DNA of 38,101 nt, from the NCBI GenBank assembly GCA_019931245.1, contig JAINDL010000043.1, positions 1-38,101 of the forward strand. The letters are read 5' to 3'. This document shows positions 4,971-36,398 of the stretch, piece by piece; within the stretch, counting starts at the first letter, position 1, and each line of letters opens with the position of its first letter. The stretch comes from Bryobacteraceae bacterium CoA2 C42. GTDB taxonomy: Bacteria > Acidobacteriota > Terriglobia > Bryobacterales > Bryobacteraceae. Under the pieces are notes generated by a model. It had not been told where the DNA came from. It worked only from the letters and a program-made list of their open reading frames with translations, and ran no database searches. Both the position numbers and the translations under genes were made by a program.

Positions 4971-4980
4971 TCTGCGTTAC

Positions 4981-4987
4981 CATTTTA
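4981..4987. promoter_or_regulatory. Putative shared -10 core, mqnP / DUF192 gene
   Basis: CATTTTA. On the minus strand it gives a -10 of TAAAAT (4987-4982) with a predicted +1 at 4975, 5 bp before the mqnP ATG. On the plus strand CATTTT keeps only the key A2 and T6 and predicts +1 at 4993, one base past the DUF192 start. This is the weakest member of the set. No convincing -35 was seen. Confidence 0.35.
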
Positions 4988-4991
4988 CTGG

Positions 4992-5453
4992 ATGCTCGCC
5001 CGATCATTTCTGCTTCTGTTTGTCGCCGGATTCCTTGGCTGCTCTTCGAGCCCCCGCAAGACCGCAACGGTGGAGGATTTTCACCTCCGCGAGTTGAAGC
5101 TGCCGAACGGGAAGGTTTTGAAGGTGGAGACGATGTCGAAGATGGCGGACGTCATGCGGGGCATGATGTTTCGGGATTCGCTGGCGCCGGACCGGGGGAT
5201 GCTGTTTATTCACGGGGAGCCGGGGCTGTATCCCTACTGGATGTATCAGGTACGGATTCCGCTCGATATTGTCTGGATCGACCGTTACAAGATTGTCACG
5301 GAGATCTCTCCTGAGACCCCGCCCTGCCCGAGTGAAAGCAGCTCCGCGTGTCCGAAGTTTGGCGGTTCGAGAACGTCCCTCTACGTTCTTGAGATGGCCG
5401 CCGGGGAAGCAGAGAAGAACAAGCTACAAGTTGGCGACAGGATCGATTTTTAA
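4992..5453 (+). CDS. DUF192 lipoprotein
   Basis: A 153-residue DUF192 protein. The ATG at 4992 opens a lipoprotein signal peptide with a lipobox ending FLGC around residue 17, so it should be anchored to a membrane facing the periplasm. The DUF192 core shows [19 protein letters not shown], then [18 protein letters not shown], a PETPPCP loop with a later Cys, and the C-terminal [15 protein letters not shown]. The function of DUF192 is unknown. It starts 21 bp from divergent mqnP, and its stop lies one base before the larB start, so the two form a probable operon. Confidence 0.88.
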
Positions 5454-5454
5454 T

Positions 5455-6201
5455 ATGGACCATAACTTACTGAGGGACCTGCTTGAGCAGGTTAAGGATG
5501 GACGGACGGATGTGGCGGCGGCGGCCGAACGGTTGCGGCATTTGCCGTTTGAAGATTTGGGATTTGCGAAGGTGGACCACCACCGGGCGCTGCGCCACGG
5601 GGTGCCGGAGGTGATCTTTGGCCTGGGCAAGGCGCCGGAGCACGTGGTGGATATCGCCCGGAAGTTGCAGGAGAAGGCGAGCAATCTGCTGATTACGCGA
5701 ACGACGAAGGAGTGCGCCGCGATGGTGATGGAAGCCATACCGGGGGCCGAGTATTTTCCGCTGTCCGGCTGCATCCGGGTATGGCGGGATAAGACGGTCT
5801 TTGGGCGCGGGAAAGTGGGAATTGTTTGCGCCGGTACGAGCGACATTCCGGTGGCCGAAGAGGCCAAGGTGACGGCCGAGGTGATGGGGAACGAGGTTTT
5901 CTCGATCTACGACGTCGGGGTGGCGGGGATCCACCGGTTGATGAGCAACCGGGAGCGGCTGATGGAGGCGAAGGTGCTGGTGGTATGCGCGGGCATGGAG
6001 GGGGCGCTGCCGTCCGCCGTGGGCGGGTTGGTGAGCGTGCCGGTGATTGCGGTGCCGACTTCGGTGGGCTACGGGGCGGCGTTCCAGGGTTTGGCGGCGA
6101 TGTTGGGCATGTTGACGAGCTGCGCGAGCAACGTCACCGTGGTGAATATCGACAACGGCTTTGGCGGTGCGTACGTAGCGAGTTTGATTAACCGGCCTTA
6201 G
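5455..6201 (+). CDS. larB: Nickel-pincer cofactor biosynthesis protein LarB
   Basis: A 248-residue LarB. It carboxylates and hydrolyses nicotinic acid adenine dinucleotide to pyridinium-3,5-biscarboxylate mononucleotide, the first step to the nickel-pincer cofactor of lactate racemase and relatives. The C-terminal half is PurE-like, with [17 protein letters not shown], the [17 protein letters not shown] loop, [16 protein letters not shown], and an ending in [13 protein letters not shown]. The ATG at 5455 sits one base after the DUF192 stop. LarC, LarE and LarA are not visible here, so the rest of the pathway must be elsewhere if it is active. The TAG stop interlocks with the TAA stop of the convergent gene (6198-6201). 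Confidence 0.93.
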
Positions 6202-6554
6202 GCGAGGGGCTCAAGGACCACGTAGAGTCCGAAGCGGGGTTCGAGCGAACCCCGCCCCCAGCGGTTGACGATCCAACGGGCGCGCAGGAAGCGGACCTCG
6301 GCCTCCGGCGGGAGGGTCAAGACGAGGGCCGAAGTGCCCACGTAGAACTTCTGGGGGAACGCGGCCAGCGGGGTGCCTGGCCACGCGGCGCCGTCCGGCG
6401 AGCCTTCGAGCAGTAGTTCGAGCGACTCCTGCTCGACGATGGAGGTGATGCCGAGCGTCAACTGGACGGTCATCCAGTGGGGGGGACGTTCGAGAATGGG
6501 GGAAGCGCCGTTGGCATGGACTACCGTCTCGGGAAGCAGGAAAACCGGAACCAT
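6198..6554 (-). CDS. Hypothetical protein downstream of rodZ
   Basis: A 118-residue protein that I do not recognise. There is no signal peptide or clear membrane segment; the predicted content is mostly beta-strand with alternating hydrophobic residues ([40 protein letters not shown]). A small beta-sandwich is a guess. It starts 9 bp after the rodZ stop on the same strand, so it is probably in the rodZ transcript. Its stop interlocks with that of convergent larB. The tight spacing on both sides supports it being a real gene. Confidence 0.6.
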
Positions 6555-6563
6555 GCCAGCGCG

Positions 6564-7445
6564 TTAGACTTCGCCGGCTGGCTTAGCCGGCGCGGGGCGG
6601 TTGGGTTCGAGAATCTCGACCTGGTCTTTGGTGAGATTTACGACGCGGACCTGGCCGCGGGGACCGATCGGCCCGATATCGCGGCCGGCCTTCTGGACGG
6701 TAATTCCGCCGGCGTTGCCGACCACCATCCGGGCCGACTCGCTCGTCCGCATGGACTGACTCTGGCCGGGTTCGAGCACCCCCATGAAGATACGCTTGCC
6801 ATCGGCGGTCACTTCGAGCCAGGTTTTCTCCGTGGCGGCGATGTTCAGCGAGATGACGCCTTCGACAAACGATTCGGCGCTGGTAGCGGCGGCCGTGGTA
6901 ACGGGGCTGACGGCAAGCTCGGCGGGGGGGGCGGCGGCGGGTTGGGCCGGGACGGCGGGTTGGAGCATGGGGCGGTCCGCGACGGCGGCGCGGGCGGTCT
7001 CGGCGCCGCGCAGATTATCCCAAAGCAGCGACACGAGACCGCCCCCGGCGATCAGAACGACAAGCGCGGCGACCGCGAGACCAGTGCGTCCGTCAAAAAA
7101 AGAAGTCGGTTTATCGGTGACGGGCGCCAGGGAAATCAACTTGCGCTCGGCCAGCAGGCGGGCGCGGGGATCTCTCGCGGCGCCGATGGCTTCCAGGTCC
7201 ACGCTGGCATGGCTCCCCAGAATGGAGTTGTATTGGTTCTCAAACTGCTGTCCGTTCAGACCCAGCGCCTGGGCGTACTGGCGGACGAAACTCCGGTTGA
7301 AGAACCCGCCGGGGAGCAGATCCCACTGCTCGGCCTCAATCGCTTCGAGGTACCTTGAACCGATCCGCAAATCATCGGCGATGGGGCCAATGGCCCTACC
7401 CTGCCGGAGGCGCTCATCCCGTAACTGCTGCCCTAAGCTTGCCAT
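6564..7445 (-). CDS. rodZ: RodZ-like cell-shape protein (HTH, TM, DUF4115)
   Basis: A 293-residue protein with the RodZ layout. The N-terminal helix-turn-helix (HTH_25) spans about residues 3-75 and includes LGQQLRDERLRQG and GGFFNRSFVRQYAQALGL. One transmembrane segment follows around residues 110-130 (LAVAALVVLIAGGGLVSLL), then an Ala/Pro-rich linker. The C-terminal DUF4115 domain runs from about residue 185 (EKTWLEVTADGKRIFMGVL, then MVVGNAGGITVQ). RodZ links cytoplasmic MreB to the wall-elongation machinery. It is a RodZ-type protein; a different role for the extracellular domain cannot be excluded. The ATG at 7445 is 36 bp from the divergent glycosyltransferase start. Confidence 0.85.
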   Translation of the reverse strand: MASLGQQLRDERLRQGRAIGPIADDLRIGSRYLEAIEAEQWDLLPGGFFNRSFVRQYAQALGLNGQQFENQYNSILGSHASVDLEAIGAARDPRARLLAERKLISLAPVTDKPTSFFDGRTGLAVAALVVLIAGGGLVSLLWDNLRGAETARAAVADRPMLQPAVPAQPAAAPPAELAVSPVTTAAATSAESFVEGVISLNIAATEKTWLEVTADGKRIFMGVLEPGQSQSMRTSESARMVVGNAGGITVQKAGRDIGPIGPRGQVRVVNLTKDQVEILEPNRPAPAKPAGEV

Positions 7446-7469
7446 AGCACCAGATTTTCCGATCCACAC

Positions 7470-7476
7470 TATAATA
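7470..7476. promoter_or_regulatory. Near-symmetric -10 core, rodZ / glycosyltransferase
   Basis: TATAATA. Plus strand: a perfect TATAAT at 7470-7475 puts +1 at 7482, exactly the TTG start of the glycosyltransferase. Minus strand: TATTAT at 7476-7471 puts +1 at 7464, 19 nt before the rodZ ATG. The two starts are 18 bp apart. No clear -35 on either strand. Confidence 0.6.
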
Positions 7477-7481
7477 TAACA

Positions 7482-8516
7482 TTGTCTAGCGAAGTCACAG
7501 TACCGCACGCGAGCGTGATCGTGGTCAACTGGAACCGGTGTGAGTTGCTGCGCGAGTGTCTTGTATCTATAGAAAAACAAGTGACATCGGCCGGTTCTCC
7601 CTTTCCCTCCGAGACGATCGTCGTCGATAATGGCTCCGAGGACGGATCCCCTGAATTGGTGATATCCGAGTTTCCGGCCGTGCGGCTGATCCGCAACCGG
7701 AGCAACCGGGGGTTCTGCGCCGCGAACAATCAGGGGATTGCCGCGGCGCGGGGGGAGCGAATTGCTCTGCTGAACAACGACGCGGTGGCCGACCCGCTCT
7801 GGCTGGCCGAACTGTGCGGGGCGCTCGACGGGGCGGAGACGGTAGGGATGGCCGCGAGCAAGATTGTGCAGTATGAGGCGCCGGACCGCATTGACAAGGC
7901 GGGCCATATTCTCTATCTTGACGGGCAGAACCGGGGACGCGGGACGGGGGAGGCCGACGAGGGCCAGTACGATGGTCCGCTTGAGGTGGGGTGGCCGGAT
8001 GGCTGCGCGGCCATGTATCGTAGAGCGATGCTCCAGCAGATCGGAGGCTTTGACGAGGACCTGTTTGCCTATGCCGACGATGCCGAACTGGGTTTGCGGG
8101 CGCGCATCGCCGGTTGGCGCTGCGCCTACGCGCCCGGGGCGGTGGTACGTCACCGGCGCGGGGCAACGCTCGGCCGGGGCAACCCCGAGCGGGTTTTTCT
8201 GATTGAACGGAACCGGATTCTGTTGGCGGCGAAGCTGTTCCCCTGGCGCCTGCTGGTGCTGAACCCCTACTATTTCGGGCGGCGTCTCTGGGCCGCGCCC
8301 CGGCAATCCGGCGATATGGCGGCGTTTCCGGGTTGGGGCGGGAAGTTGGCTCTGGCGGCGGCGGTGGTGCGGGCTGATCTGGCCGCGCTCTGGCTGCTGC
8401 CGAAGTTTTTGGCCAAGCGCCGCGAGGTCCGCCGCCTGGCCCGGCTGCGCGGGCGCGAACTGGCTGATCTTTTGCGGCGGGAAGCTCCCGCCCCGGCGCT
8501 GATGTACGGCCAATGA
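7482..8516 (+). CDS. Family 2 glycosyltransferase (rhamnosyltransferase-like)
   Basis: A 344-residue GT2 protein with a GT-A fold. ASVIVVNWN opens the first strand, followed by TIVVDNGSEDGS, the nucleotide-binding IRNRSNRGFCAANNQG and LLNNDA. The later GWPDGCAAMYRRAML and FDEDLFAYADDAELGLR segments are typical of the rhamnosyltransferase subgroup. A basic C-terminal region (about residues 280-335) may touch the membrane. It probably builds a cell-surface polysaccharide, and the acceptor is unknown. The predicted start is TTG at 7482 with no Shine-Dalgarno; it coincides with the +1 expected from the TATAAT at 7470. The next in-frame start is GTG 7515, which would cut into the first strand. The stop overlaps the next gene by 4 bp (ATGA). 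Confidence 0.9.
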   Translation: MSSEVTVPHASVIVVNWNRCELLRECLVSIEKQVTSAGSPFPSETIVVDNGSEDGSPELVISEFPAVRLIRNRSNRGFCAANNQGIAAARGERIALLNNDAVADPLWLAELCGALDGAETVGMAASKIVQYEAPDRIDKAGHILYLDGQNRGRGTGEADEGQYDGPLEVGWPDGCAAMYRRAMLQQIGGFDEDLFAYADDAELGLRARIAGWRCAYAPGAVVRHRRGATLGRGNPERVFLIERNRILLAAKLFPWRLLVLNPYYFGRRLWAAPRQSGDMAAFPGWGGKLALAAAVVRADLAALWLLPKFLAKRREVRRLARLRGRELADLLRREAPAPALMYGQ

Positions 8517-9472
8517 GCGAGCAGCGAGGTACCCATTGTCCGGCCTGCGGGCACGGCGACTACAAGTCGCTGTTCCATGGAACAGACCGGCTCTACGCCA
8601 CGACGACGCGGAGTTTCACCATCGTCGAGTGTACCCAATGCCGCCTGCTCCGGCTTTTTCCGCAGCCGGATCCGGCCGAACTGGGCCGCTACTACCCGGC
8701 CAACTACTGGTTCAACCCGGTGGCAAACCCGGCGGCGTCTCCGGAAGAGCGCTACCGCCGGTTTGTGCTCAACGACCATGTGCGTTTTGTCGAGCGGGCG
8801 ATTGAGGCGGCCGGAGAGCGCGGGCCGGTTCTGGACGTGGGCTGCGGCGGGGGGCTGTTTCTGCGCCTGCTGCGGGAGCGGGGACACCGGGTGGTGGGAC
8901 TGGACTTTTCGATCGATGCGGCGCGGGTGGCCTGGGAGCAGAACCGGGTACCGGCGCTGTGCGCGACGCTATCGCGCGCCCCGCTGGCTCCGCGCACGTT
9001 TTCGACGATCACGATGTTTCACGTCCTCGAGCATCTGTATGATCCGATTGGCTACTGCGATGCGGCGCGGGAGTTGCTGCGCGACGACGGGCGCCTGGTG
9101 ATTCAGGTACCCAACGCCGCCTGCTGGCAGTTCCTGCTGTTTGGCGAGCACTGGAACGGCATCGACATTCCCCGCCACCTGATCAACTTCAAAGAGAAAG
9201 ATCTGGTGAACCTGCTCGATGCCTGCGGCTTCGCGGTGGTGCGCCGCAAGCACTTTTCGCTGCGCGACAATCCGGCCGGGCTGGCGACGACGCTCGCCGT
9301 GGGCCTCGACCCGATGGCGCGCCGAATCCGCGAGCCGCACGAAGCGCCGCGGCTGCGGCTGTGGAAGGATGCGGCTTACTTTGGTCTGATGCTCGCGTGT
9401 CTGCTGCCCACGGCGGTGGAGGCCGCCTGCGGGGCGGGGTCAACCATCATGGTGGAAGCCCGCAAGAAATGA
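8513..9472 (+). CDS. Class I SAM-dependent methyltransferase with N-terminal zinc ribbon
   Basis: A 319-residue protein. The N-terminus carries two Cys pairs (CPAC near residue 8 and CTQC near residue 40) that look like a zinc ribbon, as in sugar C-methyltransferase-like proteins. The methyltransferase core has motif I VLDVGCGGGLFL (about residue 105), the acidic motif II GLDFS, and the post-core MFHVLEHLYDP. A hydrophobic segment lies near the C-terminus (FGLMLACLLPTAVEAACG). The substrate is unknown; a glycan or polyprenyl-linked sugar fits its place behind a glycosyltransferase. It overlaps both neighbours by 4 bp, so the block is one translationally coupled operon. Confidence 0.88.
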   Translation: MSEQRGTHCPACGHGDYKSLFHGTDRLYATTTRSFTIVECTQCRLLRLFPQPDPAELGRYYPANYWFNPVANPAASPEERYRRFVLNDHVRFVERAIEAAGERGPVLDVGCGGGLFLRLLRERGHRVVGLDFSIDAARVAWEQNRVPALCATLSRAPLAPRTFSTITMFHVLEHLYDPIGYCDAARELLRDDGRLVIQVPNAACWQFLLFGEHWNGIDIPRHLINFKEKDLVNLLDACGFAVVRRKHFSLRDNPAGLATTLAVGLDPMARRIREPHEAPRLRLWKDAAYFGLMLACLLPTAVEAACGAGSTIMVEARKK

Positions 9473-10155
9473 TAGGCTACATTCTGCACTTTGAGGCGGC
9501 GATTGCGGCCGCCGTGGCCGGCCTGGCGGGGGAACTGGCCCCGGGGAGCCGCGTGCTCGACGCGGGCGCGGGCGAGGGGCAGTACGCGTCCCGTTTCACC
9601 GGCCACCGGTACGTTGGGGTGGACCTGGGGGTGGGCGATGCGCGGTGGGACTATACCGGACTGCACGCTATCGCCGACCTGCGCGCGCTGCCCTTCCCGG
9701 ACGGCGTCTTTGCCGGAGTGTTGAACATCGTGACGCTCGAGCATGTGACCGATCCCCAGGTGGTGGTGCGGGAGATGGCGCGGGTGCTCGCGGTCGGCGG
9801 CCGTCTGCTGCTGATCGTTCCGCACGAGTGGGAGGTGCATCAGCATCCGCACGACTATTTCCGCTACACGCGCTTTGGCTGCCAACTCCTGCTCGAACGG
9901 GCCGGGCTGACGGTGGACTCTATCCGGCCCGTGGGCGGCTACTTCCGGCTGTTGAGCCGGCGGCTGCTATCCGGCTATAAGTTTTTCCCGGCGCCGCTCA
10001 GCTGGCTGTGGCTAGCGGCAGTGGCGGCTCCGGCGCTACTGCTGCCGTGGCTCGACGGACTCGACCGGCGGGCCGACTACACCCTGGGCTACATCTGCCA
10101 CGCGCACAAGGCGCCCCAATCGGGTTACGCTGATGGCTATGCCGAAACGCCGTGA
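9469..10155 (+). CDS. Class I SAM-dependent methyltransferase
   Basis: A 228-residue methyltransferase (Methyltransf_11-like). Motif I is VLDAGAGEGQYAS (about residue 27). YVGVDLGVGDARW gives motif II, and the VLNIVTLEHVTDP and RVLAVGGRLLLIVPHEWE stretches complete the core. Near the C-terminus there is a hydrophobic stretch (WLWLAAVAAPALLLPWL), so membrane association is possible. The ATG at 9469 overlaps the previous stop as ATGA; a longer upstream opening in the same frame is discarded. It probably acts with the preceding glycosyltransferase and methyltransferase on a surface glycan or lipid-linked precursor; this is inferred from context. Confidence 0.87.
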   Translation: MIGYILHFEAAIAAAVAGLAGELAPGSRVLDAGAGEGQYASRFTGHRYVGVDLGVGDARWDYTGLHAIADLRALPFPDGVFAGVLNIVTLEHVTDPQVVVREMARVLAVGGRLLLIVPHEWEVHQHPHDYFRYTRFGCQLLLERAGLTVDSIRPVGGYFRLLSRRLLSGYKFFPAPLSWLWLAAVAAPALLLPWLDGLDRRADYTLGYICHAHKAPQSGYADGYAETP

Positions 10156-10543
10156 TCTGATTGCTCTTGCCGCCCCGCTGGCGCTGTTTGCTGCCAAGCC
10201 CGGGGGGCTGCCCAATGTGACGCTCAACGCCAAGGACGTCAAGGTGCAAAAGAACCCCTTTGGCGAACTGCGCATTTACTTCGACGGCCCCACCGACCAA
10301 CTGCGGGCCATGACCGCCGGCAGCCTGCGGCTGAACGCCGGGGCGACGCCCCATCCGCCGCACACGCACCCGGAGGAAGAGTTCATGGTGGTAACCGAAG
10401 GCACTGGCGAGATGTTTTGCGATGGGAAGACCGTGGTAGTCGGGCCGGGGTCAATGATGTACTGCGCCGCCAATGTGTCGCACGGGATTGTGAATACAGG
10501 GAAGAAACCGCTGTTATTCTACTTTTATAAGTGGAAAGTTTAA
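10133..10543 (+). CDS. Secreted cupin-domain protein
   Basis: A 136-residue single-domain cupin. The N-terminus (PKRRDLIALAAPLALFAA) resembles a short TAT or Sec signal. The metal-site motif is HTHPEEEFMVVTEG, followed by the second cupin motif around PGSMMYCAANVSHGIVNTG. Such small cupins bind a metal and may act as isomerases, dioxygenases or sensors; nothing here settles which. The gene overlaps the 3' end of the methyltransferase by 23 bp. A second ATG six bases downstream (10139) is an equally good start. It is the last gene of the operon beginning at 7482. Confidence 0.82.
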   Translation: MAMPKRRDLIALAAPLALFAAKPGGLPNVTLNAKDVKVQKNPFGELRIYFDGPTDQLRAMTAGSLRLNAGATPHPPHTHPEEEFMVVTEGTGEMFCDGKTVVVGPGSMMYCAANVSHGIVNTGKKPLLFYFYKWKV

Positions 10544-10575
10544 TGCGGCTTTAACCATTCTTTGCAGACTTTTGG

Positions 10576-10604
10576 TTGTTTCCGGGTGTCTCAGGCTCTA
10601 GAGT
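10576..10604 (+). promoter_or_regulatory. Predicted housekeeping-type promoter of the ECF sigma gene
   Basis: TTGTTT at 10576-10581 and TAGAGT at 10599-10604 are separated by exactly 17 bp. The predicted +1 is 10611, one base before the ATG of the sigma gene, giving an essentially leaderless transcript. This is the only promoter in the window with a recognisable -35 at ideal spacing. Confidence 0.5.
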
Positions 10605-10611
10605 AGTTCGA

Positions 10612-11229
10612 ATGGAAGCAACTGACGCCGAGTTGATGTGTCGCTTTCAGCGGGGTGACCTGGTAGCCTACGAAGATCTCGTCGGCCGCTACACGATCCG
10701 CCTGCACCGGTTTCTGCAGCGGCTCGTGTTGAATGCCGCCGTGGCCGAGGAGTTAACGCAAGATACCTTCCTCCGCGTGTTTCTCGCCCGGGAGCGCTAT
10801 CAGGCATCCGCCACGTTTTCCACCTGGATCTACCGGATTGCCACCAACCTCGCCCTGAACTGGCTGCGCGACTCGCGCCACGTCCGGCAGGCGGCGAGCC
10901 TCGAAGCCCTGACGATATTCGGAACGCGAATGCAGATTCCCTGCCCGGTGCGAACGGCGGAGCAAGACCTGCTGGAGTTGGCCGAACGGGATCGGATCCG
11001 GCTGGCGATCACCGCGCTGCCCGAACGGCAGCGCCTCGCCGTGATCCTGCACAAGTACGAAGGCATGGACTACGAGAACATCGCGCGCACCCTGGGCTGT
11101 TCGGTGCCGGCGCTCAAGAGCCTGCTATGCCGGGCCTATGCGGTGCTGCGGGGCCGCCTGAGCGCGGCCCCGCAGCCGCAGAATCAGAACTCGTTGCCCT
11201 TGTACATGGCGGCCACGTACTGCTCGTAG
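10612..11229 (+). CDS. ECF-type RNA polymerase sigma factor
   Basis: A 205-residue sigma-70 family ECF factor. Region 2 spans about residues 10-80: DLVAYEDLVGRY, then ELTQDTFLRVF and the -10 recognition part FSTWIYRIATNLALNWLRD. Region 4 lies at about 125-180 and shows ITALPERQRLAVILHKYEGMDY followed by the helix-turn-helix IARTLGCSVPALKSLLCRA. The start at ATG 10612 is chosen over an upstream in-frame TTG (10576), because that TTG falls inside the predicted -35 box and residues before the ATG do not fit the family. No anti-sigma gene is adjacent. The last 46 bp run into the 3' end of convergent msrP, so the tail after region 4 may be accidental. Confidence 0.9.
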   Translation: MEATDAELMCRFQRGDLVAYEDLVGRYTIRLHRFLQRLVLNAAVAEELTQDTFLRVFLARERYQASATFSTWIYRIATNLALNWLRDSRHVRQAASLEALTIFGTRMQIPCPVRTAEQDLLELAERDRIRLAITALPERQRLAVILHKYEGMDYENIARTLGCSVPALKSLLCRAYAVLRGRLSAAPQPQNQNSLPLYMAATYCS

Positions 11230-12469: not shown

Positions 12470-12471
12470 TT
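12432..12471 (-). terminator. Weak candidate terminator after ldcA
   Basis: On the minus strand, AACCC (12471-12467) and GGGTT (12447-12443) form a 5-bp stem with a loop of about 19 nt. GAAG follows, then seven Ts (12438-12432). The T-run is clear but the stem is short. Confidence 0.35.
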
Positions 12472-13489: not shown

Positions 13490-13500
13490 ACCCGTTGAGT

Positions 13501-16139: not shown

Positions 16140-16144
16140 GCGAC

Positions 16145-16151
16145 TATTATG
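16145..16151. promoter_or_regulatory. Near-symmetric -10 core, glgB / deaminase
   Basis: TATTATG. Minus strand: CATAAT (16151-16146), +1 at 16139, exactly the glgB ATG. A TTTAGA lies 17 bp upstream (16174-16169). Plus strand: TATTAT (16145-16150), +1 at 16157, next to an in-frame GTG at 16158. The two starts are 18 bp apart. Confidence 0.55.
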
Positions 16152-17045
16152 GCAACAGTGCTTGATTTTCTAAAGACGCTTCCCAAAGCCGAACTTCACG
16201 TCCACCTTGAGGGATCCTTTACCCCGGACGTTCCCGACTCCGAGTTAGCCGCCAAATGGGACTGCTGCGACTTCGCCAGCTTCCTTGAATCGTTCAAATG
16301 GACGGTGAGTTTTCTCAAAAAACCGGAGGATTATGGCCGCGCCGCCCGCCAGTTGATCTCCGCGCTGCGGCGTCAGGGCGTTACCTATGCCGAGATCACG
16401 CTGTCGGCCGGGGTGGTGCGGTGGAAGAAGCTCGATCTCGAAGAGGTATACGCGGCGGTCAACCACGAGGCGCGGCGCGCTCCGTTTCCCGTTTATTGGA
16501 TTGTCGATTGCATCCGCCAGCACGGCGGCGGCGGGGCGATGCCGGTGGCCAGGTTTGCCGCCCGCCACGCAGCCGACGGCGTGGCCGCTTTCGGCATTGG
16601 CGGCGACGAGACGAGCGTGGCGGCCGAGGAGTTTCGCGGCGCCGTGGCGGCCGCGGGGGTGCCGTTTGTGCCGCACGCGGGCGAGATTTCGAACGCGGAG
16701 AATATCTGGGAGATGGTCCGGCTGGGGGCCCGCCGCATCGGCCACGGCATCCGCGCCGTCGAGGACCCGGCCCTGTGCGCCTATCTCAAAGAGCACGATA
16801 TCCCGCTTGAGATTTCGCTGACGAGCAACGTCCGCACGGGCGCCGTCCCCTCGCTGCCGGCGCACCCGCTGCGGCGGTTGTTCGACGCCGGGGTGCCGGT
16901 GGTCCTCGGCACGGACGACCCGGCGATCTTCGGCACAACGCTGGTGGACGAGTACCTGCTGGCCGCCGAACTGGGCTTCTCGCGGGCGGAGCTGACGCAA
17001 CTGGCCGAAAACAGCCTCCGCTACGGCTTCCAGCGGGCTAAGTAG
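16149..17045 (+). CDS. Adenosine deaminase-family hydrolase (possible aminodeoxyfutalosine deaminase)
   Basis: A 298-residue member of the adenosine deaminase family, shorter than the usual 330-350 because the region after the first metal motif is compact. All metal and catalytic motifs are present: HVHLEG, FVPHAGE, RRIGHGI, LTSNVRTG and GTDDPAIFGT. Some members deaminate 6-aminodeoxyfutalosine in menaquinone synthesis. Since mqnE and mqnP lie about 11 kb away, that role is plausible here, but adenosine or another purine is equally possible. The ATG at 16149 lies inside the predicted -10 element, so translation may instead begin at GTG 16158, giving 295 residues. It overlaps the convergent sialidase-like gene by 25 bp. 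Confidence 0.85.
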   Translation: MATVLDFLKTLPKAELHVHLEGSFTPDVPDSELAAKWDCCDFASFLESFKWTVSFLKKPEDYGRAARQLISALRRQGVTYAEITLSAGVVRWKKLDLEEVYAAVNHEARRAPFPVYWIVDCIRQHGGGGAMPVARFAARHAADGVAAFGIGGDETSVAAEEFRGAVAAAGVPFVPHAGEISNAENIWEMVRLGARRIGHGIRAVEDPALCAYLKEHDIPLEISLTSNVRTGAVPSLPAHPLRRLFDAGVPVVLGTDDPAIFGTTLVDEYLLAAELGFSRAELTQLAENSLRYGFQRAK

Positions 17046-17941
17046 ATCGCCGTTTTCTCTTCGTGCGAGCTGTAGTAACTGATCCACAGCTCGCCCTTTT
17101 CCCAAACCAAACCCGCATAGCTCGAATCGCCGTTCGAAGGCAGCTTCTCTAACTCAGTCAGCTTCCCCGTGGCCGGGTTGATTTCAACGATTGCGGTCCG
17201 CTGCTTGCCGTCATAGAGCCGGACGACGCCAATCACCCGGCCCCCGGGAATCTGCAGCATGTGCGGCCCGCCGATGCGAACGCCCATGTCCTGCCAGGTC
17301 CATTCTTTGTAGGGCGGCCGGCTCGTACCCCACTGCCCGGTCATCGTGCCGCGGTCCCGCCGCAGCAGCATCCGGGCGGTGCCGTCTTTTTCAAACAGCA
17401 GCGAGGTTTCGTTGGGGTAGCCTTCGGTGAACAGGCGGGGCACCCAGGGTTCGAAGGTCCGGCCATCGGCGCTGCGGTAGAGCCGGGCAAAGTCGGTGTC
17501 CCGGTTGGTGGTCCCGTAGCCGACACTGTAAGCGAGACCCTTGTGCCACTGTACGCGCCAGAGCCAGAAGTTCAGTTCGCCGGCCTTGACCGGCTCGTTC
17601 CACTGCCGGGCGTCGCGGGAAAACCAGACCATCGACTGGTGCGAGACGGGTTCTTTGGGCCGGTCGGCTGCCGCCGTCGTGAGCATCAGTTCGCCGCGCG
17701 GGGTGACGGTCAGTTTGGGGTCGCGCAGGTCGAGCGCGGGCAGGCTCAGCCGCGCGGCGGAGCTCCATTGTTTGCCGTCGCGGCTCGTGATGACCCGGAT
17801 GGCGCCGTCGGGGGAAACGTGGCGGCTGGCCTCGCGAAACGCGCAGACCCACTCCCCCCGGTAGCGGATCAGATCCGTAAAGGCGTTGTGCGGAGCCGCA
17901 TCCCAAATGCGCGCCACCATCAGCAGGCTGGCCAGTATCAT
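17021..17941 (-). CDS. Sialidase-like beta-propeller protein
   Basis: A 306-residue protein resembling the six-bladed exo-sialidase superfamily. Repeated blade-like segments include YRGEWVCAFREASRHVSPDG, DGKQWSSAARLSL, DLRDPKLTVTPRGELMLTT and a final GLVWEKGELWISYYSSHE. True sialidases use an Arg triad, a Glu and a Tyr; I can see candidate residues but cannot confirm the set, so the enzymatic activity is open. From ATG 17941 the N-terminus is a short hydrophobic stretch (MILASLLMVARIWDAA) that may be a signal peptide. A promoter-based reading favours ATG 17920, which would lose it. It starts 6 bp from the divergent Nudix gene. Confidence 0.72.
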   Translation of the reverse strand: MILASLLMVARIWDAAPHNAFTDLIRYRGEWVCAFREASRHVSPDGAIRVITSRDGKQWSSAARLSLPALDLRDPKLTVTPRGELMLTTAAADRPKEPVSHQSMVWFSRDARQWNEPVKAGELNFWLWRVQWHKGLAYSVGYGTTNRDTDFARLYRSADGRTFEPWVPRLFTEGYPNETSLLFEKDGTARMLLRRDRGTMTGQWGTSRPPYKEWTWQDMGVRIGGPHMLQIPGGRVIGVVRLYDGKQRTAIVEINPATGKLTELEKLPSNGDSSYAGLVWEKGELWISYYSSHEEKTAIYLARWKP

Positions 17942-17942
17942 A
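17936..17942. promoter_or_regulatory. Near-symmetric -10 core, sialidase-like / Nudix
   Basis: TATCATA. Plus strand: TATCAT (17936-17941), +1 at 17948, exactly the GTG start of the Nudix gene. Minus strand: TATGAT (17942-17937), +1 at 17930, 10 nt before an in-frame ATG at 17920 of the sialidase-like gene. The two starts are 18 bp apart. Confidence 0.55.
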
Positions 17943-17947
17943 GTCAG

Positions 17948-19129: not shown

Positions 19130-19182
19130 GGCTTGCTCCATTATGATGCCAACCGGGGCGCGAAGGGTGCGGGGCGATACGC

Positions 19183-19189
19183 TATATTA
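19183..19189. promoter_or_regulatory. Near-symmetric -10 core, cysE / nuoA
   Basis: TATATTA. Plus strand: TATATT (19183-19188), +1 at 19195, exactly the first ATG of nuoA. Minus strand: TAATAT (19189-19184), +1 at 19177, which would give cysE a 48-nt leader containing GGAG before ATG 19129. A separate CATAAT at 19145-19140 is a second candidate for cysE. Confidence 0.5.
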
Positions 19190-19194
19190 GGGGT

Positions 19195-19551: not shown

Positions 19552-19624
19552 TCCCCTCCCTGCCCGCCCCGTATCCGCTCGCCTCGCGTCCAAAACAAAA
19601 TCTAGTAACATTGTGAGGATTCCC

Positions 19625-21385: not shown

Positions 21386-21390
21386 CCGCT

Positions 21391-22464: not shown

Positions 22465-22476
22465 CCCCAACGTCGG

Positions 22477-25669: not shown

Positions 25670-25732
25670 CCACTCTGGCCACTCCCTGCGCAACCGACCA
25701 GTGTAGCAACACGGCTCCCGCGGCAAGGGGTC

Positions 25733-25774
25733 GCCGGAATGAGTGAGCCGGAATGAGTGAGCCGGAATGAGTGA
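25733..25774. repeat. Three perfect tandem copies of a 14-bp unit
   Basis: GCCGGAATGAGTGA is repeated three times without mismatch at 25733-25746, 25747-25760 and 25761-25774, followed by a partial GAATG. It lies in the 166-bp gap between the divergent helicase and nth genes, the only divergent gap in this window without the 7-bp -10 core. The remainder of the gap shows no gene. Confidence 0.95.
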
Positions 25775-25835
25775 GAATGTTGAGTTGGGCCGGCCTTCTC
25801 GCCGCCGCCTCCACCGGACACGAACCGATCCTCCC

Positions 25836-29220: not shown

Positions 29221-29231
29221 GAAAGGGAACT

Positions 29232-30185: not shown

Positions 30186-31506
30186 AACTGCTCCTCCCGT
30201 TGCTGGCCCTCGCTCTGCCTCTCGCCGCCGCCGAACCCGACTGGGCGACCCTCGAACCCTACGCGCTCAGCCTCCTGCAGCGCTACATCCAGATCCCCAG
30301 CATCAACCCCCCGGCCGACACCAAGACCGCCGCCGAGTTCCTCAAACGCGAACTCGAAGCCGTCGGCATCGCGGTTAAGCTCTACGACACCGGCGATGGC
30401 AAGCTCATCAATCTCGTCGCCCGCGTCCCGGGACGAAACAAGGCGAAGAAGCCGCTCCTGCTGCTCAACCATCTCGATGTCGTCCCCGTCGACCGCAAAG
30501 CCTGGGGCCGCGTCGATCCCTTCTCGGGCGAAGTCAAAGACGGCTTCATCTGGGGCCGCGGCACCCTCGACATGAAGGGCATCGGGATCATGCACCTGAT
30601 GGCGCTCATCACGCTCAAAAAGGCCGGCCTGACCCCCGAGCGCGATATCGTCCTGCTGGCGAGCTGCGACGAGGAAACGGGCGGCGACAAGGGCGTCCGC
30701 TGGATGCTCGCCAACCATCCGGCCGACATCGACGCCGAATTCGTCCTCGACGAAGGCGGCCTCGGCACCCGCGATATCTTCCGGCAGGGTAAGCTCGTCT
30801 ACGGCATCTCGGTCGCCGAAAAGCAGCCGCTCTGGATCCGCCTGCGCGCCACCGGCACCGCCGCCCATGGCTCCCAGCCCATTCCCGAAAACGCCAACAT
30901 GATCCTCTACGCCGCCCTCGCCCGCGCCCTCGCCCTGCCCGAAGGCGGCAAGGCCAACGACGTCGTCGAGTCCATGCGGAAAGCCAGCGGCGGTGAGTTC
31001 GCCGCCGGCAAGTTCACCGCCGCCATCCAGAAAAACACGATGACCCTCACCACTCTCCGCAGCGGCGTCGGCGACCCGCCCAAAGTCAACGTCATCCCCT
31101 CCACCGCCGAAGCCACCATCGACTGCCGCCTGCTGCCCGGTACCAACGCCGACGAGTTCGTCAGCGAACTCAAGGCCCGCATCAACGACCAGCGCATCGC
31201 CGTCGAACTCACCAATACCCCGCCCGGCGACCCCGGCACCTCCAACTACGAAACCGGCCTGTTCCGCGTCCTCCGCCAAGTCATTCTCAAGTACCACCCC
31301 GACGCCGAAGTCACCCCGATGCTCGTGCCCTACTCCACCGACTCGACCAAGTTCCGCCACAAAGGCCTCCCCGCCTACGGCTTCACCCCGCTCGTCCTCC
31401 CCGGCCAGATCCTCGCCACCATGCACTCGGACGCCGAGCGGATTCCGCTCGATCAGTTCTACACCGGGGTGCGGATGATGTTCGACGTGGTACGCTCGGA
31501 ATTCTA

Positions 31507-31507
<1 letters not shown>
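30182..31507 (+). CDS. Secreted M20-family metallopeptidase
   Basis: A 441-residue zinc peptidase of family M20 (ArgE/DapE/CPG2). A signal peptide ([17 protein letters not shown]) covers about residues 1-17. Metal and catalytic residues are visible in [12 protein letters not shown] (His, Asp), GRGTLDMKG (bridging Asp), SCDEETGG (general base Glu) and VLDEGG. The dimerisation lid domain lies at about 205-330, and a C-terminal His is in ATMHSDAE. It likely cleaves peptides or N-acyl amino acids in the periplasm, with unknown specificity. The start overlaps the kinase stop as ATGA, and its TAA overlaps the pgk ATG by one base (TAATG). Confidence 0.9.
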
Positions 31508-32676
<1,169 letters not shown>

Positions 32677-32681
32677 CCGCG

Positions 32682-32718
32682 CCGGTCGGGGGGGACCGCG
32701 CCGGTCCCCCCCGGCCGG
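32682..32718. terminator. Strong 16-bp hairpin between convergent pgk and DUF1501
   Basis: Positions 32682-32697 pair with 32703-32718: 16 bp with one G-U pair, including seven consecutive G-C pairs, around a GCGCC loop. No T-run follows on either strand. It fills the 43-bp gap and touches the DUF1501 stop, so it could stop transcription from both sides or protect both 3' ends. Confidence 0.75.
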
Positions 32719-32719
32719 G

Positions 32720-34132
32720 CTAACTCACAATCGGCTTAATGACGTGCCCCGCCACGTCCGTCAGCCGGAAGTCCCGGCCCTGCGAACGGAACGTCAGCTT
32801 CGTATGGTCAAGGCCCAACTGGTTCAGAATCGTTGCGTGGATGTCGTGGATCTCGATCTTGGCCTCCACCGGCGAGAACCCAAACTCGTCGCTTCCCCCG
32901 TAACGTACGCCCGGCTTGAGCCCGCCGCCCGCCATGAACATGCTGAAGCTGTCGATGTGATGGTTCCGTCCGATCTTGCCCTTCTCCCGCACCTCGCCCA
33001 TCGGCGTCCGCCCGAACTCGCCGCTCCAAACCACCAGCGTCCGCTCGAGCAGACCCCGCTGTTTGAGATCCTTGATCAGCGCAGCCGAAGCCCGGTCCAC
33101 CTCTTTGGCCACCTGGTCGAGCGGCTTGGTGATGTCGTCGTGGTGATCCCAGTCGGTATGATACAGCTGCACAAACCGCACGCCGCGCTCGACTAACCGC
33201 CGCGCCAGCAGGCAGTTATTGGCATAACTCCGCTTGCCCGGCTCGGCGCCGTACATCTCGAGCGTCTCCTTGGACTCCTTCGAGAAATCAATCAACTCCG
33301 GGCCCGAGGTCTGCATCTGATAGGCCATCTCGTACTGCGTGATGCGGGTGGCGATCTCGGCGTCTCCGGTCTCGTCGAGCTCCATCTGATTCAGGTCCTT
33401 GAGCACTTCAATCGTCTGCCGCTGCTGCTCCGGCGTTACCCCCTGCGGCGTCGACAGATTCAGAATCGGGTCGCCGACGCTGCGGAACGGAATGCCCTGA
33501 AACGAGGTCGGCAGAAAGCCGCTCGACCACAGCGCCGCCCCGCTGCGCGGACCGCGCGGACCGCTCTGCAGCACCACGAAGCCGGGCAAATCCTTCGACT
33601 CGCTCCCGATGCCGTAAGTCACCCACGCGCCCATCGAAGGGCGCCCGGCGCGGATGCTGCCGGTGTTGGCGAACATCTTCGCCGGTCCGTGGTTGAAGTT
33701 CTCGGTCGATACCCCGTGCAGCACCGTCAGGTCATCGGCAATGGAGCCCACGTGGGGCAGCAGGTCGCTGAAATAGTGGCCCGAGTTACCGTAGCGCTGA
33801 AAGGTGCGGCGCGTGCCGAGCAGCTTCGGCGTCTCCTTCGAAAAGGTGTCCATGAAGGCGAATCGCTTGCCTTTGAGGAAGGAGTCCGGCGTCGGCTTGC
33901 CGTCCCACTGCACCAACTGCGGCTTGTAGTCGAGTAACTCGAGGTGGCTGGGGCCGCCGGCCATGAACAGGAAGATGACGCGGTCGGCCTTGGCCGGAAA
34001 ATGCCCCTGGCCGGCGCCCGACAGTCCGTCGGCCAGCAGTGAAGCCAGGCCGAGTTTCCCGATACCGAAGCCGCAATTACGAAACAACTGCCGGCGTGTC
34101 TGAAAGCGTGTCAGTCTGTTTTCTAGATCCAT
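32720..34132 (-). CDS. DUF1501 family protein, TAT-exported (second copy)
   Basis: A 470-residue DUF1501 protein paralogous to the one at 542-1861. A twin-arginine motif TRRQLF lies at residues 12-17, followed by a hydrophobic stretch (GFGIGKLGLASLLADGL). IFLFMAGGPSHLELLDYKP, GRPSMGAWVTYGIGSESKDL, WSGEFGRTPMGEV and HDIHATILNQLGLDH correspond closely to the same places in the first copy. It follows the DUF1549/DUF1553 gene by 5 bp, as in the other module. The family relates to the alkaline phosphatase/sulfatase fold, but its substrate is unknown. Confidence 0.92.
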   Translation of the reverse strand: MDLENRLTRFQTRRQLFRNCGFGIGKLGLASLLADGLSGAGQGHFPAKADRVIFLFMAGGPSHLELLDYKPQLVQWDGKPTPDSFLKGKRFAFMDTFSKETPKLLGTRRTFQRYGNSGHYFSDLLPHVGSIADDLTVLHGVSTENFNHGPAKMFANTGSIRAGRPSMGAWVTYGIGSESKDLPGFVVLQSGPRGPRSGAALWSSGFLPTSFQGIPFRSVGDPILNLSTPQGVTPEQQRQTIEVLKDLNQMELDETGDAEIATRITQYEMAYQMQTSGPELIDFSKESKETLEMYGAEPGKRSYANNCLLARRLVERGVRFVQLYHTDWDHHDDITKPLDQVAKEVDRASAALIKDLKQRGLLERTLVVWSGEFGRTPMGEVREKGKIGRNHHIDSFSMFMAGGGLKPGVRYGGSDEFGFSPVEAKIEIHDIHATILNQLGLDHTKLTFRSQGRDFRLTDVAGHVIKPIVS

Positions 34133-34137
34133 GGTAG

Positions 34138-36378
34138 TTACTCTCGGGTCATGAACTCGTCAAGGTTGAGCAGGACGCGGGAGACCGCCGTCCACAGCGT
34201 CGTTTCACTCGCCCCGGGCGCCGAGTCCCGCTGCTGGCGGACAAACCGGAGTAGGCGCTCGGTCTCGCGCGGTCGCGGCGTCCGCTGCACGGCCAACTCG
34301 AACCCGTGCCGGAGCCGGGCGGCCTCCCCGGCCGGTGCCTCTTTGAGAATGCGCTGCGCCAGCGCGCCCGCAAACTCGAAGTTAGCCTCATCGTTCAACA
34401 GCGTCAACGCCTGCAGCGGCGAGTTCGACCGGATGCGCCGCGTGCACGAGGTGATCCCGTCGGCGGCATCAAACACAGTCAGGCTCGGGTGCACGGCGCT
34501 GCGCTGGAAGAAGGTGTACATGCCGCGCCGGTAGCGCTCCGGGCCCGTCGCCGTCTTCCACTCGCGCACCACCTGCGTCACGTTCAGCGCCCCGGCGGGA
34601 ATCGGCGGGTAGAAGCTCGGGCCGCCCAGCTTTTCGGTCAGCAAACCGCTACTGACCAGAGCCGAATCGCGGATAATCTCCGCGTCCAGCCGCAGCCGGT
34701 TCTGCCGGGCCAACAGTTTATTCTCCGGGTCCACCATCGCGGCGTCCGGCCGCGGCAGCGAAGCCTGCTGGTAAGTCGCGCTGGTAACAATCAACTGATG
34801 CAGCGCCTTCTGGCTCCACCCGCTCTCGATGAACGAGGCGGCCAGATAGTCGAGCAGTTCCGGGTGCGTCGGCCGGTCGCCCACCACCCCGAAATCGCTC
34901 TCGGTATCCACAATGCCGCGCCCGAAATACTTCTGCCAGACCCGGTTCACCGTCACCCGCGGCGTCAGCGGATTGTCCTTCGCCACCAGCCATTTCGCGA
35001 AATCAAGGCGCGTGGCGTTGGCCGGCATCGGCGGCAGGAACGAAATGCCGCGCGGTTCAACCGGGCTGCCCTTGCGCGTGAAGTCCCCGCCCAGATGGAT
35101 GTAGGACGGGCGCGGCGTCGGGCGCTCTTTCATGATCAGCGTGCGGATCAGGTTCGGTTTCTGCTTGCGGATCTCGGCCAGTTCGTTGCGCAGGGCAATC
35201 AGCTTCGGATCCTTGTCCGCGTTCTCGGTAAGCGTCTCCTGATGCTTGCGGATCTTGAACTCCCACTCCTGCACATCGGCATCCCATTTGGCCTGCCGCG
35301 CTTTCTCCTCTTCGCTGCCGATTTCGAGGAACGGACGGTTGAAATACTTCCGGTCGGCCTCTTTATCGATTTCGTCCACCCCGTTCCAGAACGCGAAAAT
35401 CTGATAAAACTCCCGCTGCGTCACCGGGTCATATTTATGATCGTGGCAGCGCGCGCAAGCCAAGGTCAGCCCGAGAAAAGCCGAACCCGTCGTGGCGACC
35501 CGGTCGGCCACCGCCTCGACGCGGTACTGCTCAAAGTCAATGCCGCCCTCGTAGTTGGACGGGGTGTTCCGGTGGAAGCCCGTGGCGATCAACTGCTCGG
35601 TCGTCGCATTCGGGAGTAAGTCGCCGGCAATCTGTTCAATTACGAACTGATCGAACGGCATGTCTTTGGTCAGCGCCTGCAGCACCCAGTCGCGGTACGG
35701 CCAGATATCGCGCGGCGCGTCAATGGTATAGCCGTCCGTATCCGAGTAGCGGGCCACGTCGAGCCAGTGCCGGCCCCAGCGCTCGCCGTAAGCCGGCGAA
35801 GCCAGCAGCCGGTCCACCACCTTAGCGTATGCCGCCGGCGAATCATCTTTCAGAAACGCTTCGAGTTCGGCCGGAGTCGGCGGCAACCCGGTCAGGTCCA
35901 GGTGTACCCGGCGCAGCAGCGTCCGCTTATCGGCCCGCGGAGATAGCCCCAGCCCCTTCTCCTGCAGCTTGGCCAGAATAAAGGTGTCGATCGTCGCCCC
36001 GGCTGGCTTCGGACGCACCGGCTGAAACGCCCAGTGTTTACTGGTCCGGCGCTTGGCCTGCAGGAACGAGGCGGGAGCCGGCATGCCGTCCTGCACCCAT
36101 TTCTCAAGCACGGCAATGTCGGCGTCCGACAACTTCTTACCGCCCTTGGGCATCTTCAGGTCGCCCGTGTGCTTGACGGCCGCCACCAGAATCGGGGCCG
36201 CCGGTCCGCGATTCCCGCCCTTCAAAATGGCCTCCTTGGAATCGAGCGCCAATCCGCCGTTCACCGAATTGACGTTGTGGCAGCCCGCGCAATTCTTCTT
36301 GAGAACCGCCAGGGCCTCGGCTCCGTCCTGCGCCACCAGCGGCAGCGCTGCAAGGAAGATGAAACTGATTCGAAGCAT
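34138..36378 (-). CDS. Cytochrome c-type DUF1549/DUF1553 protein
   Basis: A 746-residue secreted protein. A signal peptide is at about residues 1-16 (FIFLAALPLVA). A PSCyt1 haem domain with CAGCH (about residues 30-34) follows. DUF1549 (about 125-330) shows RRVHLDLTGLPPTPAELEAFL, RWGRHWLDVARYSDTDGY and TLACARCHDHKYDPV, which adds a second CxxCH. DUF1553 occupies about 455-735, with NPLTPRVTVNRVWQKYFGRG and SPLQALTLLNDEANFEFA. The function is unknown; electron transfer tied to an extracellular oxidation, with the DUF1501 partner, is a common suggestion. A predicted TAAGAT -10 puts +1 one base before the ATG. Confidence 0.93.
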   Translation of the reverse strand: MLRISFIFLAALPLVAQDGAEALAVLKKNCAGCHNVNSVNGGLALDSKEAILKGGNRGPAAPILVAAVKHTGDLKMPKGGKKLSDADIAVLEKWVQDGMPAPASFLQAKRRTSKHWAFQPVRPKPAGATIDTFILAKLQEKGLGLSPRADKRTLLRRVHLDLTGLPPTPAELEAFLKDDSPAAYAKVVDRLLASPAYGERWGRHWLDVARYSDTDGYTIDAPRDIWPYRDWVLQALTKDMPFDQFVIEQIAGDLLPNATTEQLIATGFHRNTPSNYEGGIDFEQYRVEAVADRVATTGSAFLGLTLACARCHDHKYDPVTQREFYQIFAFWNGVDEIDKEADRKYFNRPFLEIGSEEEKARQAKWDADVQEWEFKIRKHQETLTENADKDPKLIALRNELAEIRKQKPNLIRTLIMKERPTPRPSYIHLGGDFTRKGSPVEPRGISFLPPMPANATRLDFAKWLVAKDNPLTPRVTVNRVWQKYFGRGIVDTESDFGVVGDRPTHPELLDYLAASFIESGWSQKALHQLIVTSATYQQASLPRPDAAMVDPENKLLARQNRLRLDAEIIRDSALVSSGLLTEKLGGPSFYPPIPAGALNVTQVVREWKTATGPERYRRGMYTFFQRSAVHPSLTVFDAADGITSCTRRIRSNSPLQALTLLNDEANFEFAGALAQRILKEAPAGEAARLRHGFELAVQRTPRPRETERLLRFVRQQRDSAPGASETTLWTAVSRVLLNLDEFMTRE

Positions 36379-36384
36379 TGTGGG

Positions 36385-36391
36385 TATCTTA
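36385..36391. promoter_or_regulatory. Near-symmetric -10 core, DUF1549/1553 / haem-copper protein
   Basis: TATCTTA. Plus strand: TATCTT (36385-36390), +1 at 36397, 2 nt before ATG 36399. Minus strand: TAAGAT (36391-36386), +1 at 36379, 1 nt before the ATG at 36378. The two starts are 18 bp apart. Confidence 0.5.
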
Positions 36392-36398
36392 TCAAGAG

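What the first reader, a model, noticed from the sequence alone, without database searches (positions are those of the whole stretch)
4971..36398. A shared near-symmetric -10 core sits in six of seven divergent gene gaps
The gaps at 4971-4991, 7446-7481, 16140-16148, 17942-17947, 19130-19194 and 36379-36398 each contain or border one 7-mer: CATTTTA, TATAATA, TATTATG, TATCATA, TATATTA, TATCTTA. Read on both strands, every one gives a -10-like hexamer offset by one base, so the predicted starts are always 18 bp apart. This is the geometry described for bidirectional bacterial promoters with overlapping -10 elements. Such AT-rich 7-mers should be rare in DNA this GC-rich. The seventh gap (25670-25835) lacks it and is much longer. 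One symmetric element driving each divergent pair could be a general promoter design in this lineage.
Basis: partly seen in the sequence, partly recalled or inferred. Interest (0 to 1): 0.75.

Follow-up and report, generated by a model that had tools for sequence, protein, structure and literature searches.

The report
Ordinary promoters touching start codons
The repeated AT-rich motif between back-to-back genes is real, but it is mostly the ordinary promoter "-10 box" of genes whose messages begin at, or within a few bases of, the start codon; a few very tight gaps probably serve both genes, while a special symmetric design used throughout the genome is not supported.

Summary
The six 7-mers are present, the seventh gap lacks the motif, and the clustering is far beyond chance: 6 of 7 gaps against a mean of 0.43 in random segments; 0 of 5000 trials reach 6. 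The "18 bp apart" is arithmetic built into the reading, not an observation. What the sites share is distance to a start codon: each is a -10-like hexamer 5-8 nt before the plus gene's start, as in leaderless genes (one start must move to GTG 16158). In this acidobacterial genus, TANNNT 5-8 nt before the start is common in divergent gaps up to 100 bp (56 of 174 starts) and rarer before codirectional genes (22 of 306 with gaps of 40 bp or more). Symmetry adds nothing measurable: base 7 = A is not enriched (24/82 vs 21/68), and one -10 alone predicts 4.8 "shared" readings where 5 were seen. Gaps 16140, 36379, 4971, and 17942 in relatives, plausibly serve both genes; three of these were measured and are strongly conserved. 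At 7446 and 19130 the element follows one gene. Leaderless genes in Acidobacteria and bidirectional -10s are both published. Real signal, ordinary basis, a few interesting compact promoters.

The parts
4971..4991 (.). 21-bp gap between ubiA-family gene (minus, ATG 4970) and DUF192 gene (plus, ATG 4992); 6 of 21 columns vary in 12 genus members
4978..4983 (+). best plus -10, TACCAT, 8 nt before ATG 4992
4982..4987 (-). best minus -10, TAAAAT, 11 nt before ATG 4970
7470..7475 (+). -10 TATAAT, 6 nt before TTG 7482 (glycosyltransferase gene); TATANT-6-TTG in 11 of 11 displayed genomes. The RodZ-like minus partner is present in all 11, at 36-38 bp in ten and at 78 bp in G007
   Evidence: the reverse reading lies 25 nt from the minus start 7445
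16145..16151 (.). TATTATG: plus -10 TATTAT 7 nt before GTG 16158 (adenosine deaminase); minus -10 CATAAT 6 nt before ATG 16139 (GlgB-like)
   Evidence: CTATTATGGC in 10 of 11 displayed genomes; the name GlgB is recalled, not searched
16158..16160 (+). proposed true GTG start of the adenosine deaminase gene; GTG at this place in the 6 close relatives aligned
17936..17942 (.). TATCATA: plus -10 TATCAT 6 nt before GTG 17948 (NUDIX gene); minus reading TATGAT overlaps the called minus ATG 17941
   Evidence: TANNNT 6-7 nt before this GTG in 11 of 11 displayed genomes; minus gene not found in the G006 locus, element kept
19183..19188 (+). -10 TATATT, 6 nt before ATG 19195 (NADH-quinone oxidoreductase chain 3); TATA(T/G)T-6-ATG in 5 of 5 loci with the gene; 7th base A in 3 (G000, G012, G006), G in 2 (G010, G009)
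19140..19145 (-). separate minus -10 CATAAT, 10 nt before ATG 19129 of the serine acetyltransferase-like gene
   Evidence: exact in 8 of 16 displayed genomes; gene name recalled, not searched
36385..36391 (.). TATCTTA: plus -10 TATCTT 8 nt before ATG 36399; minus -10 TAAGAT (with upstream TG) 7 nt before ATG 36378
   Evidence: 20-bp gap varies at 1 column in 8 genomes
25670..25835 (.). seventh divergent gap, without the motif

Best explanation
The AT-rich 7-mers are housekeeping -10 elements placed 5-8 nt before start codons, so that transcription starts at or within 2 nt of the start codon and the mRNA is leaderless. This holds for the plus gene in all six gaps if one start is moved to GTG 16158. 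The gaps are very short because a leaderless gene needs only about 12-14 bp of intergenic DNA; the -35 region, if any, would lie inside the neighbouring gene. A -10 hexamer is nearly its own reverse complement, so in a gap of about 17-22 bp it also falls near the right distance from the other gene's start. In 3-4 of the six gaps RNA polymerase probably uses the same or an overlapping -10 in both directions. Shown: positions, clustering, spacing to starts, conservation. Inferred: transcription, start sites, leaderless translation and bidirectional firing.
For: Spacing read from the sequence: the plus start site predicted at -10 + 7 lies within 2 nt of the plus start codon in 6 of 6 gaps (4993/4992, 7482/7482, 16157/16158, 17948/17948, 19195/19195, 36397/36399). 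On the minus side it lies within 1 nt in 2 of 6 (16139, 36378) and 5 nt away in one more (4970). TANNNT 5-8 nt before called starts of divergent genes: G000 38 of 180 (0.211) against a background of 0.054; G017 30 of 162 (0.185) against 0.039. By gap class: divergent up to 30 bp 20/62, 31-100 bp 36/112, over 100 bp 26/218, codirectional at least 40 bp 22/306, under 40 bp 46/519; all divergent against codirectional at least 40 bp p=3e-7. The element follows its gene when the partner changes: 17942 in G006 (no minus gene in the fetched locus), 16140 in G007 (no adenosine deaminase in the fetched locus, minus CATAAT kept), nuoA in G012 and G006 (about 1 kb from the serine acetyltransferase-like gene, TATAGT-6-ATG kept), 7446 in G007 (gap 78 bp instead of 36-38). 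Gap columns vary less than third codon positions of the minus gene: 1/20 vs 17/25, 6/21 vs 23/25, 3/18 vs 13/25. Leaderless genes were predicted in 3 of 3 Acidobacteria genomes, mean 13.3% (PMC3160421, passages).
Against: No start site is mapped in any of these genomes. Gene starts come from my own simple gene finder and from ORFs; some are wrong (at the 16140 gap it called 15995 and 16068). A sister family (G028) shows a weaker version of the same spacing signal (0.114 vs 0.038, 70 starts), so the signal is not special to the genus. The minus partners at 7446 and 19130 are 25 nt or more from the reverse reading. G009 and G016 share orthologous genes with G000, so starts are not all independent.
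Confidence: 0.75

Rival explanations
1. One reading: one symmetric -10 drives each divergent pair from starts 18 bp apart, as a general promoter design of the lineage.
For: 16140 fits both ways (starts 19 bp apart). Distal relatives at 17942 have, by eye, two GTG starts with a 17-18 bp gap around TATTCTA. 36379 and 4971 are strongly conserved across the genus. The pattern CAT-N5-7-TANNNTA-N5-7-ATG is in excess in the 19 genomes of the genus (293 vs reversed control 110), also in 2 genomes of family f2 (15 vs 3), not in 14 genomes of family f3 (54 vs 60); 6 genomes of other genera of the same family give 26 vs 20. In-frame scan with TANNNTA: 0.12 per cell at leaderless spacing vs 0.045 elsewhere, but only 3 of 171 pairs.
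Against: Base 7 = A not significantly enriched. Shared readings 5 vs 4.8 expected when one hexamer is kept, p=0.6. Leaving out G014, one-sided excesses predict about 256 close/close matches and 262 were seen, so no two-sided excess is needed. In-frame scan with YANNNTR: 4 of 171 pairs, 0.16 per cell vs 0.147 elsewhere. Both ATGs at called divergent starts in 5 of 27 close matches against 2 of 13 far ones. Symmetric base absent at 19130 in 2 of 5; two separate -10s at 36379 in G007 and G014 (by eye).
Confidence: 0.15
2. Operator sites: the conserved 20-bp gaps are near-palindromic binding sites of regulators rather than promoters.
For: At 36379, 19 of 20 columns are invariant in 8 genomes, more than a -10 alone would need.
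Against: The six cores have no common sequence beyond the -10 pattern; their shared feature is distance to a start codon. Relatives swap the minus hexamer for other -10-like ones (TAAGAT, TATGAT, TAGAAT, by eye).
Confidence: 0.07
3. Chance AT-rich spots plus start-codon letters: CAT and ATG at gap edges help make YATNNTR.
For: Two of six 7-mers contain the called start codon itself (sequence).
Against: 0 of 5000 random draws reach 6 of 7 (start-codon letters not controlled there); conservation over the genus.
Confidence: 0.03

Closest known systems
Bidirectional bacterial promoters with shared -10 (Warman/Grainger; PMC12825309 introduction and passages seen, PMC10268837 passages seen; the 2021 paper is not held)
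   Same: Near-symmetric -10, A-11 and T-7 reciprocal, opposite starts most often 18 bp apart (also 10 and 23)
   Different: Here start sites are predicted, not mapped; start codons sit at the predicted start sites; symmetry is not enriched over other -10s of the genomes sampled
Leaderless genes with TANNNT about 12 bp before the start codon (Zheng 2011, PMC3160421, passages seen)
   Same: Same motif and distance; Acidobacteria listed with 13.3% leaderless genes on average
   Different: The passages I saw do not treat divergent pairs; a word-start search of its main text for 'divergent' and 'bidirectional' gave 0, although the library listing counts one 'divergent' in the full text
-10 next to ORFs in Deinococcus-Thermus (PMC12340547, listing and term search only)
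   Same: -10 directly before ORFs, leaderless mRNA
   Different: Other phylum; the term search found no bidirectional, divergent or head-to-head there

Membership tests
Bidirectional promoter with shared -10 | -10 hexamer legible on both strands with A2 and T6 coinciding | tested here: met
   Met by construction for the six 7-mers; a -10 alone gives this reading
Bidirectional promoter with shared -10 | Two mapped opposite start sites about 18 bp apart | not testable with these tools
   No RNA data; distances here are predictions
Bidirectional promoter with shared -10 | Symmetric base enriched over directional promoters of the same genomes | tested here: not met
   24/82 vs 21/68, p=0.86; gaps up to 30 bp 9/20 vs 36/130, p=0.12. 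Bidirectional use of single gaps is not excluded by this
Leaderless gene | -10-like TANNNT 5-8 nt before the start codon | tested here: met
   Plus hexamer of the named 7-mer is TANNNT in 5 of 6; the sixth (4971) has TACCAT at 8 nt. Genome-scale peak
Leaderless gene | mRNA 5' end at the start codon | not testable with these tools
   No transcript data
Leaderless gene | Signal conserved with the gene in relatives | tested here: met
   7446 11 of 11 displayed, 17942 11 of 11 displayed, nuoA 5 of 5 loci with the gene

The most novel reading that the evidence does not exclude
In this acidobacterial genus some head-to-head gene pairs have become one promoter of 17-21 bp: both start codons are transcription starts, the initiating A of each ATG supplies the other promoter's upstream T, and the -35 region of each gene is written inside the first codons of its neighbour. 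The 36379 pair would show the step: two separate -10s in a wider gap in G007 and G014, one shared core in a 20-bp gap in eight other genomes.
Probability: 0.3. Interest if true: 0.5.

Novelty: new member of a known kind. Interest (0 to 1): 0.3.

Why it matters
It turns a striking pattern into a simple rule: in organisms with leaderless genes a divergent gap can shrink to about 20 bp, and the self-symmetry of the -10 then makes sharing likely. It also shows that gene starts in such gaps can be called inside the promoter, which affects annotation. The genus offers conserved natural examples for testing whether polymerase really fires both ways from two start codons.

Tried and rejected
Symmetric 7-mer as a general design: rejected on the base-7 test, the kept-hexamer null and the pattern arithmetic. 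The in-frame cassette scan gave too few cases to decide. A peak of gap lengths at 20-24 bp in G000 (8 of 90 pairs) was not seen in G017 (0 of 81), so I do not rely on it. Fetched pattern matches: all 27 close ones of G001 and G003 and 13 far ones; three further far places of G003 were left out and one overlapping pair was counted once; the classes did not differ. Other genomes' matches were not fetched. A dif-like site as an explanation of the skew switch: best 16 of 28, no better than shuffles.

The genomes displayed are a subset of those matched: 14 of 20 (4971), 11 of 21 (7446), 11 of 17 (16140), 16 of 20 (19130), 11 of 19 (17942), 15 of 40 (36379). Most of the rest are other families, fragments or paralogs, but same-genus G005 and G018 were left out at 36379 without a reason; one search shows them: G005 keeps ATCATATCAA, G018 shows no such element. 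By eye I had first taken the partner as missing in G007 (7446) and in G007 and G014 (36379); one search finds it in all of these, and the report is mended accordingly. The conservation counts use 8, 12 and 6 genomes chosen because they align without gaps, which favours conservation; plus-gene columns there are not corrected for insertions, so I quote the minus gene.
Full report
The window is a whole contig of an unnamed 6.07-Mb genome. A search of named genomes with one window protein gives acidobacterial metagenome genomes as the nearest relatives: 99% JADCJL010000017.1 "Acidobacteriaceae", 92% JAPKZB010000081.1 "Acidobacteria", 89% CAMDCN010000001.1 "Candidatus Sulfopaludibacter" (80 of 91 loci listed). 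The relatives searched include 18 further genomes of the genus.

Observation. All six 7-mers are there and the seventh gap lacks the motif. The clustering is real: 6 of 7 gaps against 0.43 of 7 in random segments, 0 of 5000 trials as high. Around called starts in the window, YATNNTR on either strand lies within -30..+6 of 9 of 14 divergent starts and 4 of 20 codirectional ones. The constant 18 bp is not an observation: one 7-mer read on both strands with a fixed 7-nt distance always gives 18.

What the elements have in common. Reading the plus hexamer and adding 7 nt puts the predicted start at 4993, 7482, 16157, 17948, 19195 and 36397; the plus start codons are 4992, 7482, 16158 (GTG instead of the called ATG 16149), 17948, 19195 and 36399. 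So 6 of 6 fit leaderless mRNAs, one of them after moving its start. On the minus strand 2 of 6 fit within 1 nt (16139, 36378) and one is 5 nt away (4970); the others are 10 (if the inner ATG 17920 is used), 19 (7445) and 48 nt (19129) away. Pfam names UbiA, DUF192, RodZ-like, glycosyltransferase, adenosine deaminase, NUDIX, NADH oxidoreductase chain 3 and DUF1549/DUF1553 proteins among the ten submitted; two of ten had no match (17021-17941 and 36399-37517).

Genome scale. With my own gene finder on 867 kb of G000, 714 kb of G017 and 400 kb of G028 (another family of the same order), TANNNT 5-8 nt before the start is found in 0.211 of divergent starts in G000 (background 0.054), 0.185 in G017 (0.039) and 0.114 in G028 (0.038). 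By gap class in G000, G017, G016 and G009: 20/62, 36/112 and 26/218 for divergent gaps up to 30, 31-100 and over 100 bp; 22/306 and 46/519 for codirectional gaps of at least 40 and under 40 bp. In the first, smaller sample, genes under 20 bp behind a codirectional neighbour showed a Shine-Dalgarno-like peak (GGAG, GAGG or AGGA) at 7-10 nt.

Symmetry. A TANNNT hexamer read backwards and shifted by one base already has the A and T that matter most; only base 7 is free. Base 7 is A in 24/82 divergent and 21/68 codirectional leaderless -10s (p=0.86), and in 9/20 for gaps up to 30 bp against 36/130 elsewhere (p=0.12). In 14 independent gaps of 14-26 bp, 9 have a -10 for both genes: 5 shared (4.8 expected when the better hexamer is kept and the rest shuffled, p=0.6) and 4 with two distinct hexamers (1.1 expected, p=0.015). 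So double service of short gaps is somewhat above expectation (p=0.018, one of five overlapping length or genome classes tested), but through packed distinct -10s rather than symmetric ones. Against unrestricted shuffles of 23 gaps of 14-40 bp, 5 shared readings far exceed 0.88, which shows that -10s are there, not that they are symmetric.

Pattern counts over whole genomes (41 genomes per call). In 19 genus genomes CAT-N5-7-TANNNTA-N5-7-ATG gives 293 against 110 for the reversed control; with 10-12 on both sides 131 against 104; mixed, both orientations, 401 against 208. Family f3 (14 genomes) gives 54/60, 35/41 and 83/82. For the first pattern the other 8 genomes give 26/20 (6 of the same family, other genera) and 15/3 (2 of family f2), so the excess is not confined to the genus. 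At least 14 of the 31 matches of G014 are one repeated element, so I also leave that genome out: 262/103, 123/96, 379/199. One-sided excess is then about 66 per orientation, predicting 123 + 133 = 256 two-sided matches against 262 seen (arithmetic by hand). The excess is thus explained by one-sided leaderless promoters. Relatives share orthologous sites, so these counts are not independent.

Gap by gap. 16140: CTATTATGGC is kept in 10 of 11 displayed genomes; 3 of 18 columns vary in 6 genomes against 13 of 25 minus-gene third positions; both readings fit leaderless starts 19 bp apart. No adenosine deaminase was found in the G007 and G005 loci (the G005 locus ends within about 60 bases of the gap); in G007 the minus hexamer CATAAT stays. 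36379: 1 of 20 columns varies in 8 genomes against 17 of 25. In G007 and G014 the same pair stands with a wider gap (42 bp by eye) and two separate hexamers, TAGAAT for the minus gene and TAGATT 6 nt before the plus ATG (read by eye). In G002, G003 and G015 a plus-gene relative lies some hundreds of bases away; none was found in the G004, G005 and G021 loci. 4971: 6 of 21 columns vary in 12 genomes against 23 of 25; best hexamers are TACCAT (plus) and TAAAAT (minus), not the proposed 7-mer; the DUF192 partner is found in these 12 and not in the two displayed f3 genomes. 17942: the plus element is kept in 11 of 11 displayed genomes, including G006, whose locus lacks the minus gene; five distal members (G003, G004, G005, G008, G011) have CACCACGCTATTCTAA before the GTG, by eye two GTG starts with a gap of 17-18 bp. 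7446: TATANT-6-TTG in 11 of 11 displayed; the RodZ-like partner is present in all 11, at 36-38 bp in ten and 78 bp in G007. 19130: nuoA relative in 5 of 16 displayed loci, next to the serine acetyltransferase-like gene in 3 and about 1 kb off in 2; TATA(T/G)T-6-ATG in 5 of 5, base 7 A in 3 of 5; the minus gene has its own CATAAT, exact in 8 of 16.

Mechanism. Published work says that -11A and -7T are reciprocal when starts are 18 bp apart, and that the initiating A gives a favourable T at -18 of the opposite promoter (PMC10268837, passages). In a head-to-head leaderless pair the A of ATG could play that part. This is inference.

Known or new. Leaderless TANNNT genes in Acidobacteria are published (PMC3160421, passages) and so are bidirectional -10s (PMC12825309, introduction). 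In three searches combining the two ideas (20, 20 and 15 papers listed of 136, 52 and 31) I saw no title or abstract start about head-to-head leaderless pairs sharing a -10; most subscription journals are not held.

Noticed in passing
window 1-38101: GC skew at third codon positions does not follow gene strand and goes from +0.37 to +0.67 in the first five genes to -0.22 to -0.65 in the genes between 19.2 and 32.7 kb; the fetched part of the orthologous G010 contig changes sign too. No dif-like site found; G017 shows several sign changes, so a replication terminus is not shown.
   Followed up: partly
window 25733-25774: Three head-to-tail copies of a 14-base unit (GCCGGAATGAGTGA) in the seventh divergent gap.
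   Followed up: no
G014, many contig starts: At least 14 copies of one 27-base sequence, many within 60 bases of a contig start: probably a repeated mobile element that breaks the assembly.
   Followed up: no
window 16149-16158 and 17920-17941: Start codons called inside -10 elements: likely mis-called starts of the adenosine deaminase gene and of the minus gene beside the NUDIX gene.
   Followed up: partly
window 10612-11229: ORF that looks like a sigma-70-family factor (recalled from its sequence, not searched); my gene finder missed it.
   Followed up: no
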